42,227 nt of DNA from the NCBI GenBank assembly GCA_013001055.1, contig JABDNH010000020.1:1-42227 (forward strand), written 5' to 3'. A program made the translations under genes and the position numbers. Below are positions 32,902-41,238 of the stretch, piece by piece. Origin of the DNA: Sphingomonas sp. (GTDB taxonomy: Bacteria > Pseudomonadota > Alphaproteobacteria > Sphingomonadales > Sphingomonadaceae). The notes under the pieces were generated by a model. That model saw nothing but the letters and a program-made list of their open reading frames with translations. It was not told the origin of the DNA and ran no database searches. Numbering within the stretch: the first letter of the stretch is position 1; each line of letters opens with the position of its first letter.

Positions 32902-34320
32902 TTAGCGCGAAGCGAGCTTGAACGGCGCGTCGCCAGCGACTTCGCGCACCCAGCATTCACCGCCTGCCTGCTTGATGCTCACGCAGAAATCGCGCGCTTC
33001 GGCGTCCCCTGCAAAGCCCCAGGCAGCAAGGCGATAATATTTCTTGCCATTGACTTCGGTGCGCGCGGCCATTGGCTTGAAGTCGCCGATCGGCGCGAAG
33101 TTGGCAGTGCTGACTTCCCAACCCATGTCGAGCTGGCTGCGCTTGGAATAGGCACCGAGCTGGACGACGATCCGCGATTCGCCCTTGAGCGCTTCGGCAG
33201 CGGCGGTGATGCTGGCCGCCGACTGGGTGAAGCGGGTGGCGTCGCTCGACAGGCCGGCGCTCGGAGCGGTTTCGGCGCGCGCCAGCTTGACTGGCATCGC
33301 CGCGATATCGGCGGGCGTCATGATCGACGGCGCGGGCGCCGCTTCGACGGGCTTGGGCGCAATTCCGTCGATTTCCTGAAATTCGCCGTCGATCACCGGA
33401 ATGTCCGTCACGCGCACGTTGGCGGCGGGACGCTCGGCAAATTCGCGGTTCGTTTCGACGTCGGCGACTTCGAATTCTTCGACCGGCTGTTCGACACGAA
33501 GCGGTGTCGAGATGACCGGGCCGACCTGCGGCGCTACCGGTGGCAGCGCGGCGGCAGCCATTTGCGTGCCATTGTCGGCCTGCGGTACCAACGCAAGGCG
33601 CGTGGGCTGGCCGGGGTCAATCTGGGCGGGCGCCACGCCAGTTAGCGCGGCGACCTGCTGTGACTGATGCGTCGGCGCAGCCATCACCCGCCACTGCGAC
33701 AGGCGTGCATCGAGCTGGTCGGCAGGCACATCCTGCGCGGCAATTGCGCGTGCATTGTCCCAGTCACCGCTTAGTGCATAGGCCAGCGCCAGATTCTGGC
33801 GTGTGCGGGCATCACCCGATGCGCTACGCGCGGCGTTGTCGAGCACCGAAATCGCCGAGTGGTGGCGTCCGGCCAGAGCCAATGCCAGGCCGCGATCGCT
33901 CTCGCTGACGTAACCACGCGCCGTGTCGAGCAGCGAGACGGCGGCATCGCCGCGGCCCTGCGCGATCATCACTAGCGACCGCTTCAAGATGGTTTGTGGC
34001 TGGGCGGGCATGATGCTGAGCGAGTCTGCATAAGCCTGGTCGGCCGAAGCAAAGCGCCCGGCAGCGAAATAGGCATTGCCGAGAAGCGTACGGAAGCCCG
34101 CATCGCGCGGGCTACCTGCAACGGCCTTTTCGGCATAGTTGATCGCAGTCTCGACTTCGCCCTGCACCAGCGCAGCCTGGGCCTGCGTCGCAAGGCCGAT
34201 TTCGTCTTTGGCCACCTTCGATCCGAAGATCGAGGCGTTTGGCCCCGGTGTTGCGCAAGCCGAAAGTCCTGCGGTCAGGACAATCGCTCCAGCAATGTGT
34301 TTCGCGTTTCGAATGGTCAT
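32902..34320 (-). CDS. SPOR-domain lipoprotein with TPR-like repeats
   Basis: 472 residues. A lipobox GLSACATPG (Cys near 22) directs it to the envelope. About residues 35-210 contain TPR-like helices (EVETAINYAEKAVAGSPRD and similar). A Pro/Ala/Val-rich linker follows, then a SPOR domain ending the protein, beginning RIVVQLGAYSKRS and including KKYYRLAAWGFAG. SPOR domains bind denuded septal peptidoglycan. It is the third gene of a ParA / acidic / SPOR operon and ends just before its own terminator. Confidence 0.88.
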   Translation of the reverse strand: MTIRNAKHIAGAIVLTAGLSACATPGPNASIFGSKVAKDEIGLATQAQAALVQGEVETAINYAEKAVAGSPRDAGFRTLLGNAYFAAGRFASADQAYADSLSIMPAQPQTILKRSLVMIAQGRGDAAVSLLDTARGYVSESDRGLALALAGRHHSAISVLDNAARSASGDARTRQNLALAYALSGDWDNARAIAAQDVPADQLDARLSQWRVMAAPTHQSQQVAALTGVAPAQIDPGQPTRLALVPQADNGTQMAAAALPPVAPQVGPVISTPLRVEQPVEEFEVADVETNREFAERPAANVRVTDIPVIDGEFQEIDGIAPKPVEAAPAPSIMTPADIAAMPVKLARAETAPSAGLSSDATRFTQSAASITAAAEALKGESRIVVQLGAYSKRSQLDMGWEVSTANFAPIGDFKPMAARTEVNGKKYYRLAAWGFAGDAEARDFCVSIKQAGGECWVREVAGDAPFKLASR

Positions 34321-34366
34321 GATGCGTATCCCCTAAAGCGTCATTTCCTCTGTGAATTATCTGTCG

Positions 34367-35884
34367 TCAGCCGACCTCTTTGTTCGAAATAGTGTCGAGT
34401 TCGGGCATATCGGCCAGCATCCGGTCGAGCGCCTCGATCAGCAGCTTTTGCGACGATTGCCCCGTAAGGGCGCTCGCGAGGCGCAGCTTGAGATGGCGTT
34501 CCTTGTCGAGACGCAGCGTAAAGGCAGCCTTTCCCTTGCTTCCGGCAGCGGCGCGCGGACGGCGCGGGCGCATGGGCGCGGCAAGCGGCACGACCTTGCT
34601 GATATCGACAGCCGGTTCTCTGGCGGGCGTTTCGGCAACATGCTCGACGGGCTCTTCGGCGGCCGAGAACGGGTCGACCACTTCGGTCTGCGCGTCGAGG
34701 GGTGCGTCCAGGACCAGTTCGTCCTCTTCTTCGGCTTCGGTCGCAAGCGTTTCGTCGTCCTGCTGGCCCTCGTCGATCGCGTCGTTCAGGTCGAACGTTT
34801 CTTCTTCGACTTCGACTGCGTCGGTCAGTTCGAGCGCATCGTCTTCCTCTTCGACGGTGTCGGTGAGTTCGAGCGGCTCTTCCTCGGCCTCGGCGGCCTC
34901 GGGCAGGTCGAACGGTACCTTGTCATCGGCCTCATCGACCGGCTCTTCGATGATGGCGCCGTGCTCGGCAACGGCGTCTTCGTCTTCAGCGATATCGCCG
35001 ACAAATTCGAGGTCGTAGAGGGTAGATTCGTGAGCGACGGGCTCGTCGCCAGGCGCGTCAGCAGTGACATCTTCGACCGGATCGGCAGCAGCCTTGTCCG
35101 TCTCTGCGGCGAGAGCGGCCTCTTCATACTCTTCGAATGTGTCGACCTGCGTAACTTCGTCCGCCGCTTCGACCGATCCATCGGTTATTTCTTCTTCAAC
35201 CGGCTGATCGTCAGTGTGAGCGAAAGCCTCATCCACGACGGGCGCTTCTTCGACAGCCTCAGGCTGCGGCGCGTCATGATCGGCTTCTGCGCCATCTTCC
35301 TGTTCGGCGAACGGTACGTACCCTGCGGGCGATTCGGTCGGCTCGGCCAGCTGCATCGGATCGAGATCGGCCATGTCCTTATGCGCCGAGTAATCCTTGT
35401 CGATGCCTTTATGCTCGTTGAAAGCATTGCCGCCTGCATCTTCAGCTTCGGGATCCCACTCTTCAGCGGTCTCGTCGATATAGTCTTCGCCGTCACACCA
35501 GGCTTCGTCATCCGAAACGGCGAAATGCTTCATGATGTCGGCTTGCTGTTCGCGGACCGAGTTGGCCTGCTGCGATTCAGATTGGATATGGTCCTGGACG
35601 GCCTTGGCAGCACTGAGGCCGGCAAGCGGACCCAGCGCAGCAAGCACGCCCTTGTCATTATCGTCCCCATCGTCGTAGCGGCCCTGCACGAACCCTGGCC
35701 GCGGCGCGGTATCAGAAGATTCTTCGCTGGGCGCGGGCGTTTCTTCACCCATATCGTTCCAGCCGAGATCGTCTAGGCCCTGCCCCATCTCGCCAAAGCT
35801 CTGGCGGCGCATGGCAGGACGCGCGTCACCCTTGCGGGCGAGCAACCCGGAGGACAGCGATGCGAAGGCCTTATGATCGCTCAT
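34367..35884 (-). CDS. Acidic, disordered protein with C-terminal ribbon-helix-helix-like domain
   Basis: 505 residues, not recognised as a named family. A short N-terminal segment has several Lys and Arg (about 15-27, LLARKGDARPAMRR). Most of the middle (about 45-430) is Asp/Glu/Ala/Val rich, with near-repeats such as PLELTDTVEEED, ALELTDAVEVEE and TFDLNDAIDE. A basic Pro/Arg patch (MRPRRPRAAAGSKGK) precedes a C-terminal AAFTLRLDKERHLKLRLA segment that looks like ribbon-helix-helix, a DNA-binding dimer fold. It lies 15 bp after a ParA-type gene, an arrangement typical of ParA partners. An ATPase-stimulating role for the N-terminus is inference. Confidence 0.75.
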   Translation of the reverse strand: MSDHKAFASLSSGLLARKGDARPAMRRQSFGEMGQGLDDLGWNDMGEETPAPSEESSDTAPRPGFVQGRYDDGDDNDKGVLAALGPLAGLSAAKAVQDHIQSESQQANSVREQQADIMKHFAVSDDEAWCDGEDYIDETAEEWDPEAEDAGGNAFNEHKGIDKDYSAHKDMADLDPMQLAEPTESPAGYVPFAEQEDGAEADHDAPQPEAVEEAPVVDEAFAHTDDQPVEEEITDGSVEAADEVTQVDTFEEYEEAALAAETDKAAADPVEDVTADAPGDEPVAHESTLYDLEFVGDIAEDEDAVAEHGAIIEEPVDEADDKVPFDLPEAAEAEEEPLELTDTVEEEDDALELTDAVEVEEETFDLNDAIDEGQQDDETLATEAEEEDELVLDAPLDAQTEVVDPFSAAEEPVEHVAETPAREPAVDISKVVPLAAPMRPRRPRAAAGSKGKAAFTLRLDKERHLKLRLASALTGQSSQKLLIEALDRMLADMPELDTISNKEVG

Positions 35885-35899
35885 GGTGGGATGGCCTCC

Positions 35900-36631
35900 T
35901 TACTGGCCCACGACGCGGCGGCCGAAGCCACCGACCGGACGGGGCGAAGAAGCGGGCGCGGCGGTGTTGGGGCGCTGCGCACCGGGGGCCGTGAAAACGG
36001 TCCGGCGGAAATTCTTTTCAAGACGGTCGGAGATGTAGCCCCACAGTTCGCTGACTTCTTCCGCCGACTTACCGTTGGGGTCCACTTCCATGACGGTGCG
36101 ACCATCGATCATCGAAGCGGCAAAATCGGTGCGGTGATGCAGGGTGACCGGGGCCACCGTGCCGTGCTGCGACAGCGCAACCGCCGCTTCGTAGGTGATC
36201 TTGGCTTTGGGCGTCGCTGCGTTGACCACGAAGATCAGCGGCTTGCCGGCGCGGTCGCACAGATCGACAGTTGCACCCACGGCGCGAAGGTCATGCGGTG
36301 ACGGACGTGTCGGCACAACGACCAATTCGGCCACCGCGATGACCGACTGGATCGCCATGGTAATGGCGGGCGGCGTATCGATGACCGCCAGTTTGAATCC
36401 TTGCTGGCGCAGGACTTCGAGGTCCGAGGCCAGGCGGGCGACCGTTGTCTGGGCGAAGGCGGGCATTTCGTCCTCGCGTTCGTTCCACCAGTCGGCGAGC
36501 GACCCTTGCGGATCGATATCGATCAAGCAGACCGGGCCGTGGCCGGCTCGCTGTGCTTGCACCGCAAGGTGGCCGGACAGGGTCGTCTTCCCCGAACCGC
36601 CTTTTTGCGATGCCATTGCCAGAACGCGCAT
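35900..36631 (-). CDS. ParA-family ATPase
   Basis: 243 residues. The deviant Walker A KGGSGKTT is at residues 10-17, preceded by MASQ; Walker A' gives LIDIDPQGSLADWW, and VIDTPPAI is Walker B. The protein has the compact size of chromosomal or cargo-positioning ParA relatives and a Pro/Arg-rich disordered tail. ParA proteins cycle on the nucleoid in an ATP-dependent way and are driven by a partner. GAGGGGAAG precedes the ATG. No parB or parS-like repeat is visible. It is the first gene of its operon and divergent from the second SPOR gene. Confidence 0.9.
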   Translation of the reverse strand: MRVLAMASQKGGSGKTTLSGHLAVQAQRAGHGPVCLIDIDPQGSLADWWNEREDEMPAFAQTTVARLASDLEVLRQQGFKLAVIDTPPAITMAIQSVIAVAELVVVPTRPSPHDLRAVGATVDLCDRAGKPLIFVVNAATPKAKITYEAAVALSQHGTVAPVTLHHRTDFAASMIDGRTVMEVDPNGKSAEEVSELWGYISDRLEKNFRRTVFTAPGAQRPNTAAPASSPRPVGGFGRRVVGQ

Positions 36632-36787
36632 TATCTTCCCCTCGCGTTAGTGAACGCTGTTGTTCGAGGATGGAATTGACACTGAACTGGCTAAAATCTG
36701 GTTAACGCGCTTAAGACATTGTTGCCCTCGCCTCTTATGCGCTATGAAAAATGACGTCGTTTTGGCGTCAGTCCGAAGGGTGTGAAT

Positions 36788-37777
36788 ATGCGTAGATCGA
36801 CATTTTGGGTGCTTCTGCTGGCCGTTTCGATGGCGCAGCCGGCCGCTGCCCAATCGGTTCGCGACGGTATCGATGCCTGGGCTTCCGGAAACTATGTGGA
36901 AGCGGTCACGATCTGGCGCCCGCTGGCCGATAGCGGCGATGCCGATGCCGCCTTCAACATGGGCCAGGCCTATCGCATGGGCCGCGGGGTCGGCATCGAT
37001 AACGCACGCGCCCAGCGCTATTTTGAATCCGCCGCGCGCCAAGGCCACCTGGATGCCGAGGTCAACCTTGGCCTGATGCTGTTTTCCAATGGCGACAAGG
37101 TGAATGCGATGCGCTGGCTCCGGTCGGCCAGCAGCAAGTCCGATCCGCGCGCCATGCTGGTCTATGGAACGGCGCTATATAATGGCGACGGCGTGCCGCG
37201 CGATCCAGTAGCAGGCTATGCCTATGTAAAGCGCGCCGCGGATACGGGACTTGATCCCGCTCGGCGTACGCTGTCGGAGCTCGACCGACTGTTGTCCGAC
37301 GAGATCAAGACCCAGGGCATACAGCTCGCCGCCCGCCAGCAAGGCCTTGCCCGGACGCCGCGCGAAGCGACTGCACGGCCCAAGACACCCGCGCCGTCGT
37401 CCAAGCCCAAGGCCGTCACACCATCAGCGACCGCCAAGGCAACGCCTCCACCCGCGCCCAAGCCGACCCCGAAACCGACGGCCGCACCGCCGCCCGCGGC
37501 CAAGCCTGCACCTGTAGCAACAGCAAGCGCGGCTGCCACCGCCACGGGCCCGTGGCGTCTCCAGCTTGGCGCCTTTTCGAAGCGCAATTCTGCCAGCGCC
37601 TTGTTCGACAAGGTCAAGGGTAATGCCGCGCTTTCCGGCAAGCGCTCATTCCTGGTGAATGCCGGCAACATCACGCGCCTTCAGGTTGGCCCCTTTGTCA
37701 GCCGGGCCGCCGCCAATGCCGCCTGTAGCCGATTGCAGCAAAGCGGGCAGGCCTGCTTCCCGGTAAAAGTGAACTAA
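36788..37777 (+). CDS. Secreted Sel1-repeat protein with SPOR domain
   Basis: 329 residues. A signal peptide with cleavage after PAAAQ is followed by Sel1-like repeats (GNYVEAVTIWRPLADSGDADAAFNMGQAY and later YVKRAADTGLDPARR). A Pro/Ala/Lys-rich linker (about 195-250) leads to a SPOR domain beginning GPWRLQLGAFSKRN and ending in ACFPVKVN. It is the second SPOR protein of the locus. ATG 36788 is preferred to the GTG at 36782, with AAGGG seven bases before it. Its stop interlocks with the serB stop (CTAA). Confidence 0.88.
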   Translation: MRRSTFWVLLLAVSMAQPAAAQSVRDGIDAWASGNYVEAVTIWRPLADSGDADAAFNMGQAYRMGRGVGIDNARAQRYFESAARQGHLDAEVNLGLMLFSNGDKVNAMRWLRSASSKSDPRAMLVYGTALYNGDGVPRDPVAGYAYVKRAADTGLDPARRTLSELDRLLSDEIKTQGIQLAARQQGLARTPREATARPKTPAPSSKPKAVTPSATAKATPPPAPKPTPKPTAAPPPAAKPAPVATASAAATATGPWRLQLGAFSKRNSASALFDKVKGNAALSGKRSFLVNAGNITRLQVGPFVSRAAANAACSRLQQSGQACFPVKVN

Positions 37778-38619: not shown

Positions 38620-39544
38620 TTTGCGTCCTCCTCTCGCCCTCATCGCGGGTCCGACCGCCAGCGGCAAGTCCGCATTGGCGATCGCGGTTGCCAATGCGGC
38701 GAATGGCGTCATCATCAACGCCGATAGTGCGCAAATCTACGCCGATATCGATGTTGTTGCCGCCCGCCCAGGCGCTGACGAACAAGCGCGGGCGCCGCAC
38801 CGTCTTTACGGCGTGCGCGATGGCGCTCACCCCTGTTCGGCAGCCGATTGGGCTGGCCTCGCCCGCGCCGAGGTTGACGCGGCGCACGAGGCGGGCCAAG
38901 TGCCGATCCTCGTCGGGGGAACCGGCCTATACATGCGCACCCTGCTGGAGGGCATTGCCCCCGTTCCCGACATCAATCCCGACATTCGCGAAGAGATCCG
39001 CGCCGCCGACGTGTCCGACAATTATGCTGCGCTGCAGGAAGCTGACCCAGTTGGTGCTGCCGGGCTCAACCCTAGCGATACCACCCGCATCGCGCGTGCG
39101 CTCGAGGTCGTGCGCTCCACCGGCAAGCCCCTCGCCTACTGGCAGCAAAAAAAGGAAGGCGGCATTGGCGATGACGTCGCGCTCGCACCGATGGTTCTGC
39201 TCCCACCCCGCGACTGGCTGGTCGAGCGGTGCGATCGGCGCTTCGCCCAAATGCTGGACGAAGGCGCGATCGATGAAGTCGACGCACTGCTCGCCCGCAA
39301 CCTTGGTCCTGCATTGCCCGTCATGCGGGCCATCGGCGTCCCCGAGATCGCAGCATTCATCCGTGGCGACACATCGCGCGAAGACATGATCGAGGCGGGC
39401 CAGCTCGCCACCCGCAAATATGCCAAGAGGCAATATACGTGGTTCCGCAACCAGCCGCCCGCTGACTGGCCACGCTTCGAGGAGCCGCTCGATGCCCCGG
39501 GCGCGGTGGAACGCGCCGTTTCCATCATCACTGGCAATCTGTAG
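38612..39544 (+). CDS. miaA: tRNA dimethylallyltransferase
   Basis: 310 residues. Transfers a dimethylallyl group to A37 of tRNAs that read UNN codons. The P-loop is GPTASGKS at 13-20, and INADSAQIY and [11 protein letters not shown] are the substrate motifs. The ATG at 38612 lies inside the first codons of divergent serB. Upstream in-frame ATGs (38600, 38492) lie deeper in serB and are unlikely. Nine bases separate its stop from ilvC. Confidence 0.95.
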
Positions 39545-40752: not shown

Positions 40753-41157
40753 TCAAGCGGCGGCGAGGAATGAAGAGTATTGCCGGAGCGGTTTGTAGAT
40801 CGAGGCATGCGCCTTCACGTTGCGCAGTTCGCGTGCCATCTGCGCCAGGCTCATCATCGATCCCAGCGGCGCAATCTGGTCGTAATCGAGGGGTTTTCCC
40901 GGAAACAGGCGAACGTCCGTCTCACGCTTTCCCAGCATCACGATCGCGAGATGCCTTCTGTCTCGACAGATCCGCCGGAAGGTCGCGGTGACTTCTTCGC
41001 AATCGCCTTCGATTATCTCGGCGAAACGGTTCCCGCCCACGATCACCGACCCTGTGATCCCCGTTTCAGTGTTATAATCGCGGCAACGCGCGACGAGATC
41101 GTCGATCGCTGCTCCATCCATGGGCTCGGCCATGATGGAACTGAACGCGAGTCGCAG
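40753..41157 (-). CDS. BLUF-fold protein lacking photoactive residues
   Basis: 134 residues with one BLUF-like domain. Anchors of the fold are IDDLVARCRDYN, GITGSVIVGGNRF and EIIEGD. Aligned by spacing with AppA (Y21, N45, Q63): ours are F6, N30 and E48, at the same 24- and 18-residue distances. So flavin-contacting Asn is kept but the photocycle Tyr and Gln are changed to Phe and Glu. The Trp/Met strand end is also missing (FPGKPLDYD). It probably binds flavin or another ligand without photocycle, or has lost flavin. GGGGAGGGG precedes ATG 41157. It is the same strand as mutL, 81 bp downstream. Confidence 0.82.
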   Translation of the reverse strand: MRLAFSSIMAEPMDGAAIDDLVARCRDYNTETGITGSVIVGGNRFAEIIEGDCEEVTATFRRICRDRRHLAIVMLGKRETDVRLFPGKPLDYDQIAPLGSMMSLAQMARELRNVKAHASIYKPLRQYSSFLAAA

Positions 41158-41238
41158 CATAATCCCCTCCCCAGTCAGGTCGAGGCGCTCTCGCACCGAT
41201 GCCCCTAAGAGAAAAACACCATCGCGTCCGAAACGGTA

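What the first reader, a model, noticed from the sequence alone, without database searches (positions are those of the whole stretch)
32902..37777. ParA ATPase with acidic RHH-like partner and two SPOR proteins: candidate positioning system
Seen: a minus-strand operon parA, then a 505-residue acidic protein 15 bp later, then a SPOR-TPR lipoprotein, with a second secreted SPOR protein divergent from parA. Known: ParA ATPases are driven by partners that often carry a basic N-terminal activating peptide and can be disordered (McdB, for example); SPOR domains bind septal denuded peptidoglycan. Inference: the acidic protein may be a ParA partner that places a cargo or a division-site factor, with SPOR proteins as the envelope end. 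No ParB or parS is visible.
Basis: partly seen in the sequence, partly recalled or inferred. Interest (0 to 1): 0.72.

Follow-up and report, generated by a model that had tools for sequence, protein, structure and literature searches.

The report
ParA positioning module tied to septum-binding proteins
A chromosomal relative of plasmid-sharing machinery, an ATPase plus a helper protein that carries a conserved docking tag, is kept next to proteins that probably bind the cell-division wall, and in cousin bacteria the same docking tag is fused directly to such a wall-binding domain, which suggests that it links DNA or cell positioning to division.

Summary
In detail: parA, a 505-aa partner gene 15 bp downstream, a TPR-SPOR lipoprotein gene and a divergent Sel1-SPOR gene. 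It is not chance. This ParA is a core chromosomal orthologue (130 of 147 genomes of the order at >=58% identity), distinct from the genome's own ParA/ParB pair. The partner's acidic length varies even within the genus. [quoted passage not shown] Related ParAs on small plasmids are followed by similar peptide-bearing proteins, and the nearest solved ParA is ParF, so this looks like a domesticated ParF/ParG-type partition module. SPOR genes stay beside parA across most sampled loci of the order. My searches listed no paper on this. Most likely it is a ParA-driven system tying an RHH-DNA complex (or, in the variant, the membrane) to the septal wall. Partner identity is well supported; a septal role is inferred; the cargo is unknown. 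Verdict: new variant of a known kind.

The parts
35900..36631 (-). ParA-family ATPase, 243 aa, deviant Walker A KGGSGKT
   Evidence: orthologues in 130 of 147 genomes of the order at >=58% identity
35915..35932 (-). GGFGRR element in the ParA C-terminal tail
   Evidence: FGRR-like tail in 46 of 46 loci of the set L066-L081, 28 named Sphingomonadales, L161, L166; in 21 of 42 other RHH-type loci; in 0 of 26 SPOR-type loci
34367..35884 (-). ParA partner, 505 aa: docking peptide, long acidic low-complexity region, C-terminal RHH
35816..35863 (-). N-terminal docking peptide ASLSSGLLARKGDARP (residues 8-23 of the partner)
   Evidence: one clear match in the own genome (E 4e-15, next 0.10)
35747..35770 (-). 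second conserved short motif DLGWNDMG (residues 39-46), seen in Sphingomonadaceae partners
   Evidence: alignment A3, read by eye
34403..34531 (-). [quoted passage not shown]
   Evidence: domain bounds set by eye from the alignment
32902..34320 (-). TPR-SPOR protein with a lipoprotein-type signal (LSAC), 472 aa
   Evidence: lipobox read by eye
32944..33177 (-). SPOR domain of the TPR lipoprotein
36782..37777 (+). Sel1-SPOR protein divergent from parA, with an export signal, 331 aa
   Evidence: signal peptide read by eye
37544..37768 (+). SPOR domain of the Sel1 protein
36691..36705 (-). conserved TTAAC-N6-TTAG site 60-74 bp upstream of the parA start (CtrA-like, or an operator of the RHH protein)

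Best explanation
The locus is a chromosomally domesticated ParF/ParG-type module. Supported by sequence: ParA is a ParF-like ATPase; the downstream protein is its dedicated partner, whose N-terminal ASLxxxLLARKGxAxPA peptide is the shared feature of partners of this ParA family; its C-terminal end is an RHH domain. Inferred from ParF/ParG: the peptide's basic residues (RK of LLARKG) touch the ATP-bound ParA dimer on the nucleoid and stimulate hydrolysis, while the RHH dimer binds specific chromosomal DNA, so that a DNA-bound complex is moved or held by the ParA gradient. Inferred from synteny and from the TM-SPOR variant: the process is tied to the division septum. The SPOR-TPR lipoprotein and the Sel1-SPOR protein are its envelope-side companions, and in the related variant the partner itself spans the inner membrane and ends in SPOR, so that ParA dynamics are coupled directly to septal peptidoglycan. 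In the window's version no physical bridge from cytosol to periplasm was found, so the SPOR proteins may act in the same process without contact. My estimates: partner relation about 0.9, RHH binds DNA about 0.75, septum-linked function about 0.6, the full mechanism as stated about 0.4.
For: ParA core conservation; in the class sample of 289 genomes, 39 besides 5 of the window's own family hold a copy at >=50% identity. A docking-peptide HMM hits the gene after parA in 46 of 51 loci and 71 of 75 named loci, none of 7 distant outgroup loci, and 0 of 137 reversed N-termini; 13 of the 75 were among its 15 training rows, and the partner ORF had been picked with a preference for the motif. All 117 hits among 4909 neighbouring ORFs are the partner's reading frame (in 3 the segment printed lay elsewhere in that frame). 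Plasmid homologues: 170 records at E<=1e-30; of 6 read, all 6 have an ORF with a peptide recognisable by eye after parA; the HMM, run on the 4 annotated ones, hit 3 at E<=1e-4 and the fourth at 0.11; 2 of the 4 matched the RHH profile. Closest PDB = ParF (4dzz, E 3e-14). RHH fold. TM-SPOR partners: 8 of 8 above the Pfam cut-off, hydropathy peaks 1.96-2.71 against <=1.31 in the other partners of that set, 1-2 origins inside the RHH family. SPOR downstream of parA in 19 of 20 sampled loci of the order and divergent in 14 of 20; in 28 named Sphingomonadales loci with an RHH partner, 27 and 27, against 2-7 SPOR domains per genome. ParG tails with arginine-finger-like motifs stimulate ParF (PMC7308502, passages read).
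Against: No SPOR domain within the fetched flanks (mostly about 6 kb) of 18 of 18 RHH-type loci outside the order in the genome search sample, nor in 14 of 22 named RHH-type loci not titled Sphingomonadales or below, so SPOR is not obligatory. Two Novosphingobium genomes (L164, L186) keep parA and a downstream SPOR gene but show no docking peptide (best E 0.51; only 150 of 390 and 150 of 361 candidates were scored). The SPOR proteins here carry export signals and the partner has no clear TM. No centromere-like repeat array was seen, and only the region upstream of parA was looked at. Foldseek E-values for the RHH model are weak and no strand is called in the monomer. Plasmid homologues could mean simple DNA partition with no division role.
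Confidence: 0.5

Rival explanations
1. A purely DNA-directed chromosomal partition or locus-positioning module of ParF/ParG type: the RHH protein binds a centromere-like site, and the SPOR genes are only co-regulated neighbours of a division gene cluster.
For: Plasmid relatives with a similar peptide; RHH fold with conserved T-x-R strand residues (the DNA-contact role of such residues is recalled); RHH-type loci without SPOR outside the order.
Against: SPOR neighbours persist in distant loci of the order in which pyrB, serB, miaA and gatA no longer appear and recur in Kiloniellaceae-titled loci; docking peptide fused to TM-SPOR. No centromere repeats seen.
Confidence: 0.3
2. The partner places a protein or envelope cargo (for instance a pilus, chemoreceptor or polar complex) and the RHH serves only as an autorepressor and dimerisation domain.
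For: Partner linker carries further conserved short motifs, DLGWNDMG and PxVLRQ; in 21 RHH-type loci outside Sphingomonadales a third gene follows, most with a related (A/G)SLxxxxIRxR stretch near the N-terminus (PAS_5 above cut-off in 1 of 3 tested).
Against: Apart from SPOR and that third gene, no other family close to parA stood out across both lineages in the clusters printed (28 shown); the peptide gives no second clear match in the own genome.
Confidence: 0.15
3. A McdB-like disordered or acidic partner that positions a condensate or organelle, as the first reader suggested by analogy.
For: The window protein has a 400-residue acidic low-complexity region with pI about 4.
Against: That region is short or missing in other members of the genus and of other genera, while both ends persist.
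Confidence: 0.05

Closest known systems
ParF/ParG (TP228, type Ib plasmid partition)
   Same: Small ParA without an N-terminal HTH; ParF is the nearest solved structure; downstream RHH protein with a mobile basic N-terminal arm; ParG ranks first in the fold search, at a weak E of 0.61.
   Different: Chromosomal and conserved across an order; partner 96-505 aa or longer with a distinct ASLxxxLLARKG peptide; SPOR genes attached; no centromere array found.
Small-plasmid ParA modules of Xanthomonas, Comamonas, Deefgea, Methylomagnum and Acidiphilium plasmids
   Same: 55-66% identical ParA and a similar peptide on the following ORF, which is 80-114 aa in the 4 annotated cases; 2 of those 4 match the RHH profile.
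   Different: No SPOR gene is annotated within the flanks read (up to 2 kb); partner lacks the long linker.
MipZ / canonical ParABS
   Same: ParA/MinD superfamily; Pfam's MipZ model also matches the window ParA above its cut-off, over residues 3-54 only.
   Different: ParA/ParB and a MipZ-like protein (by recall) are encoded at other loci; this ParA has no ParB beside it and scores far below the MinD cut-off (26.4 against 212.9 bits).
FtsN, DedD and RlpA SPOR proteins
   Same: C-terminal SPOR domain; the variant partner has the N-in, TM, periplasmic-SPOR layout of FtsN (FtsN layout recalled).
   Different: The variant's N-terminus is a ParA docking peptide and it is encoded directly after parA.
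McdAB and other ParA/MinD cargo-positioning pairs (PMC10241942, passages read)
   Same: General principle: a charged N-terminal peptide of the partner engages the ATPase and the rest of the partner binds the cargo.
   Different: That paper's text holds no occurrence of 'SPOR' or 'ribbon'.

Membership tests
ParF/ParG-type (type Ib) partition module | Short ParA with deviant Walker A and no N-terminal DNA-binding domain | tested here: met
   243 aa, KGGSGKT at residues 10-16; best PDB hit ParF
ParF/ParG-type (type Ib) partition module | Partner gene directly downstream encoding a C-terminal RHH | tested here: met
   (Foldseek E-values weak; Pfam below cut-off)
ParF/ParG-type (type Ib) partition module | Flexible basic N-terminal arm that stimulates the ATPase | tested here: inconclusive
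   conserved basic peptide present; stimulation not testable here
ParF/ParG-type (type Ib) partition module | Centromere array of short repeats near the operon | tested here: inconclusive
   only a single conserved TTAAC-N6-TTAG site seen upstream; no dedicated repeat scan was run
ParF/ParG-type (type Ib) partition module | Carried by a plasmid that it stabilises | tested here: not met
   lies among housekeeping genes (gatB, gatA, pyrB, serB, miaA, mutL, named by recall), orthologous across the order; close relatives are on plasmids
Canonical chromosomal ParABS | Adjacent ParB (ParB_N domain) | tested here: not met
   the only ParB_N match in the genome lies beside another ParA
MipZ | Full-length match to the MipZ family | tested here: not met
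   PF09140 is above its cut-off (31.6 against 20.7 bits) but only over residues 3-54, the P-loop end; VirC1, ParA/NUBPL and ArsA models are also above theirs
SPOR-domain septal proteins | PF05036 above cut-off | tested here: met
   both window proteins and 8 of 8 TM partners
SPOR-domain septal proteins | Binding to denuded septal peptidoglycan | not testable with these tools
   -
McdAB | Partner binds carboxysomes or other microcompartments | not tested
   -

The most novel reading that the evidence does not exclude
A family of ParA ATPases in which one conserved docking peptide is combined with different output domains: RHH (DNA) or TM-SPOR (septal cell wall). ParA would couple nucleoid gradients directly to septal peptidoglycan, a physical link between chromosome segregation and the division wall. 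The same genome can hold both versions.
Probability: 0.4. Interest if true: 0.85.

Novelty: new variant of a known kind. Interest (0 to 1): 0.7.

Why it matters
ParA-type ATPases are known to position DNA, organelles, chemoreceptors and the divisome. A ParA whose partner ends in a septal-wall-binding domain would give a direct route by which nucleoid state reaches the periplasmic division machinery, or the reverse. It also gives a transferable sequence tag (ASLxxxLLARKGxAxPA) for recognising partners of otherwise orphan ParA proteins, and a likely case of plasmid partition machinery turned into a core chromosomal system.

Tried and rejected
McdB-like acidic partner: rejected as the main reading, because the acidic region varies between and within genera. 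Plain CtrA-regulon reading of TTAAC-N6-TTAG: kept only as a possibility. The site is conserved (24 of 39 Sphingomonadaceae-like loci have one, with its 5' end 60-105 bp upstream of parA; 0.6 expected for the three site forms searched) and CtrA is present, as is the CckA-ChpT-CtrA relay in Sphingomonadales (PMC2877005, passages). But the genome holds only 7 matches of TTAACN6TTAR (one place counted on both strands) against 21 for the reversed control pattern, so no regulon is visible; one other match lies between genes that look like cheA and chpT by recall. CenR was considered through PMC9275681 (passages) and dropped: that paper found no CenKR in Sphingomonadales and a different motif. A second clear docking peptide in the own genome: none (next E 0.10). 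A single origin of the SPOR type is not rejected (AU p 0.154), and two are open as well. Spread beyond the class: in a phylum sample of 299 genomes all 21 matches at E<=1e-40 were in the class, but most of the genomes without a match were not listed, and plasmids of other classes carry the family. AF2 of one chain cannot test ParA-peptide binding; no complex was modelled. Literature: searches (25 of 69 listed; 0 papers; 1; 0; 8; 15 of 226; 0; 15 of 174) listed no paper that by title or abstract opening treats a ParA with a SPOR partner. PMC7822825 (FtsN-like RgsS) holds both words and was seen only as a listing. One search was too broad to use.

Rows dropped: the duplicates L126, L141, L157 and L193 were left out of the counts. 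L110, L124 and L163 gave no partner candidate. L118-L125 are distant outgroup loci, shown in the tree but not counted as family members. L164 and L186 were left out of the trees and of the tail count; they stand as SPOR type without motif. The tail count put L082-L085 and L162 among the other RHH loci although L082-L085 are of the window's order. One RHH-type partner, L180, has a hydropathy peak of 1.87, and one SPOR-type, L151, only 1.4.
Full report
WHAT IS THERE. The four genes are as described. parA (35900-36631, minus) is followed after 15 bp by a 505-aa gene and then by a TPR-SPOR gene with a lipoprotein-type signal; a Sel1-SPOR gene with an export signal diverges from parA (Pfam; signals read by eye). 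NCBIfam's nearest model for the ParA is ParA_partition, just below its cut-off (166.7 against 180 bits). PHROGs gives a ParA-like partition protein (E 2.8e-39). Pfam's MipZ, VirC1, ParA/NUBPL and ArsA models are also above their cut-offs; the MipZ, NUBPL and ArsA matches cover only the P-loop end. The nearest solved structure by sequence is ParF of plasmid TP228 (E 3e-14).

NOT THE HOUSEKEEPING PARA. The genome has another ParA next to its only ParB_N protein, a MipZ-like protein (by recall) and CtrA (NCBIfam above cut-off). The window's ParA is a separate, vertically kept gene: 132 of 147 genomes of the order match at E<=1e-15, 130 of them at >=58% identity, with a gap down to paralogues at <=39%; 15 have no match. 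In the class sample of 289 genomes, 39 besides 5 of the window's own family hold a copy at >=50% identity, and 9 of those 39 hold two or more.

THE PARTNER. In most of 60 fetched loci and 80 named ones the next gene begins with a version of ASLxxxLLARKGxAxPA. A profile of that peptide hits 46 of 51 loci of the first set and 71 of 75 of the second (duplicates removed), none of 7 distant outgroup loci, and 0 of 137 reversed N-termini. Two cautions: 13 of the 75 were among the 15 training rows (a fourteenth, L193, is a duplicate left out of the count), and the partner ORF had been picked with a preference for the motif. Among 4909 neighbouring ORFs all 117 hits are the partner's reading frame (in 3 of them the segment printed lay elsewhere in that frame). 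In the own genome the peptide gives one clear match (E 4e-15; next 0.10). In the same search the three genomes without this ParA (G001, G006, G009) have no match below E 0.29. The last 50 or so residues are a ribbon-helix-helix: the AF2 model of a Sphingomonas orthologue has two confident helices there (pLDDT blocks 95-97; no strand called in the monomer), and Foldseek ranks ParG first, with Arc, CopG, PutA, CdbA and AtaR among the other rows and some non-RHH entries between (all E>=0.6, so support comes from consistency, not from any one score). The acidic middle of the window protein (pI about 4) is variable: same-genus partner reading frames run from 214 to 837 codons and RHH-type partners of other genera are 96-280 aa; of 8 partners outside the genus whose charges were counted, L068 and L072 are acidic and 6 are near neutral or basic. 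Sphingomonadaceae partners also share DLGWNDMG and PxVLRQ (by eye).

PLASMID ROOTS. 170 plasmid records hold this ParA at E<=1e-30, 4 of them at 60-66% identity and 166 below 60%. Six were read. All six have, after parA, an ORF with a peptide recognisable by eye. The profile was run on the four annotated partners, of 80-114 aa: three match at E<=1e-4, the fourth at 0.11; two of the four also match the RHH profile. In a 61-row tree the six plasmid rows sit near a weakly supported, midpoint-drawn base. The simplest story, not proved, is a domesticated plasmid partition module.

SPOR LINK, FIRST LINE: SYNTENY. The own genome has four SPOR domains; two flank this parA. Every one of 147 genomes of the order has SPOR domains, 2-7 each at E<=0.01. 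In the 20 sampled loci of the order, SPOR follows within 2 kb in 19 (not in L085) and diverges upstream in 14 (L081 is cut by its contig end). In 28 named Sphingomonadales loci with an RHH partner, 27 have it downstream (L185 is cut) and 27 upstream (L189 counted although its frame overlaps). Flanking genes such as pyrB, serB, miaA and gatA are not seen in the more distant 14-kb loci. The downstream gene is again a SPOR protein with a lipoprotein-type signal in L148, L149, L152, L154 (titled Kiloniellaceae) and L170 (Kiloniellales), and is present in L161 (Kordiimonadaceae), L166 (Emcibacteraceae) and L162. Against this, 18 of 18 RHH-type loci outside the order in the genome search sample, and 14 of 22 named RHH-type loci not titled Sphingomonadales or below, have no SPOR within the fetched flanks.

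SPOR LINK, SECOND LINE: FUSION. In a related branch the gene after parA encodes the same docking peptide, then one strongly hydrophobic segment, then a C-terminal SPOR domain. Eight of eight tested are above the Pfam cut-off, with hydropathy peaks of 1.96-2.71. Eighteen more named loci have the peptide and match a SPOR profile built from those eight. By title they are Parvibaculum (5), Tepidicaulis (1), Rhodobiaceae (4), and 8 others, one of which is a MAG titled Gammaproteobacteria. L135 is cut by its contig end and L151 has a low hydropathy peak (1.4). A protein search found 72 relatives, 56 with the peptide (the queries' own kind included); the few with a source name are called SPOR-domain, sporulation-related or hypothetical. 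The trees place this type inside the RHH family with one or two origins (a single origin not rejected, AU p 0.154). Five of the nine multi-copy genomes were read at two copies: three pair an RHH type with a SPOR type (G250, G320, G154), one has an RHH type and a type of unknown fold (G425), one has a SPOR type and a copy without a recognisable partner (G402). ParA tails go with partner type: FGRR-like in 46 of 46 loci of the set L066-L081, 28 named Sphingomonadales, L161 and L166; in 21 of 42 other RHH loci (which include L082-L085 of the same order); in 0 of 26 SPOR loci; in 5 of 10 of neither type. A terminal GAA occurs in 21 of 26 SPOR loci, 1 of 88 RHH loci and 1 of 10 of neither type.

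A THIRD COMPONENT ELSEWHERE. In 21 RHH-type loci outside Sphingomonadales the gene after the partner encodes a common third protein, most with a related (A/G)SLxxxxIRxR stretch near the N-terminus; PAS_5 is above cut-off in one of three tested, below it in another and absent in the third.

CONTROL REGION. A TTAAC-N6-TTAG site lies 60-74 bp upstream of parA here. Twenty-four of 39 Sphingomonadaceae-like loci have such a site, its 5' end 60-105 bp upstream, against 0.6 expected from the loci themselves. It could be a CtrA site or an operator of the RHH protein. Genome-wide counts do not show a regulon.

HOW IT MOST LIKELY WORKS. Supported by sequence: ParF-like ATPase, dedicated partner, RHH, SPOR association, replacement of RHH by TM-SPOR. 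Inferred from ParF/ParG (PMC7308502, passages) and from the general rule that a charged N-terminal peptide of the partner engages the ATPase (PMC10241942, passages): the peptide stimulates nucleoid-bound ParA. Inferred from SPOR biology (recalled): the envelope side sits at septal peptidoglycan. Unknown: the DNA or other cargo of the RHH, and whether the cytosolic and exported parts touch in the window's own version.

EXCEPTIONS. L164 (Novosphingobium MAG) and L186 (N. organovorum) have parA followed by the SPOR gene with no RHH partner and no convincing peptide in the genome (best E 0.51; 150 of 390 and 150 of 361 candidates scored). Partners or following ORFs below the profile threshold: L085, L098, L100, L114, L116, L168, L170.

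On re-reading the calls I corrected the claim that acidity is a feature of the whole genus, the description of the plasmid partners' C-termini, the grouping behind the tail count and the titles of the SPOR-type loci.

Noticed in passing
   Followed up: partly
L087, L096, L099, L100, L102, L104, L144-L150, L152-L154, L158, L159, L170, L173, L188, third gene of the operon: A common third protein, most with an (A/G)SLxxxxIRxR stretch; PAS_5 above cut-off in one of three tested. It may be a second ParA partner.
   Followed up: partly
L086, L156, L157 (Denitrobaculum and relatives): ParA partner with the docking peptide but a C-terminal part matching neither RHH nor SPOR; a third output domain may exist.
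   Followed up: no
parA C-termini, many loci: Tail motifs FGRR and (R)GAA go with the partner type; possible specificity or docking elements.
   Followed up: partly
38830-38920: ARAGORN calls a tRNA-Ala (cgc) inside a plus-strand ORF that looks like miaA; probably a false call.
   Followed up: no
40753-41196: ORF that looks like a BLUF blue-light sensor (by recall).
   Followed up: no
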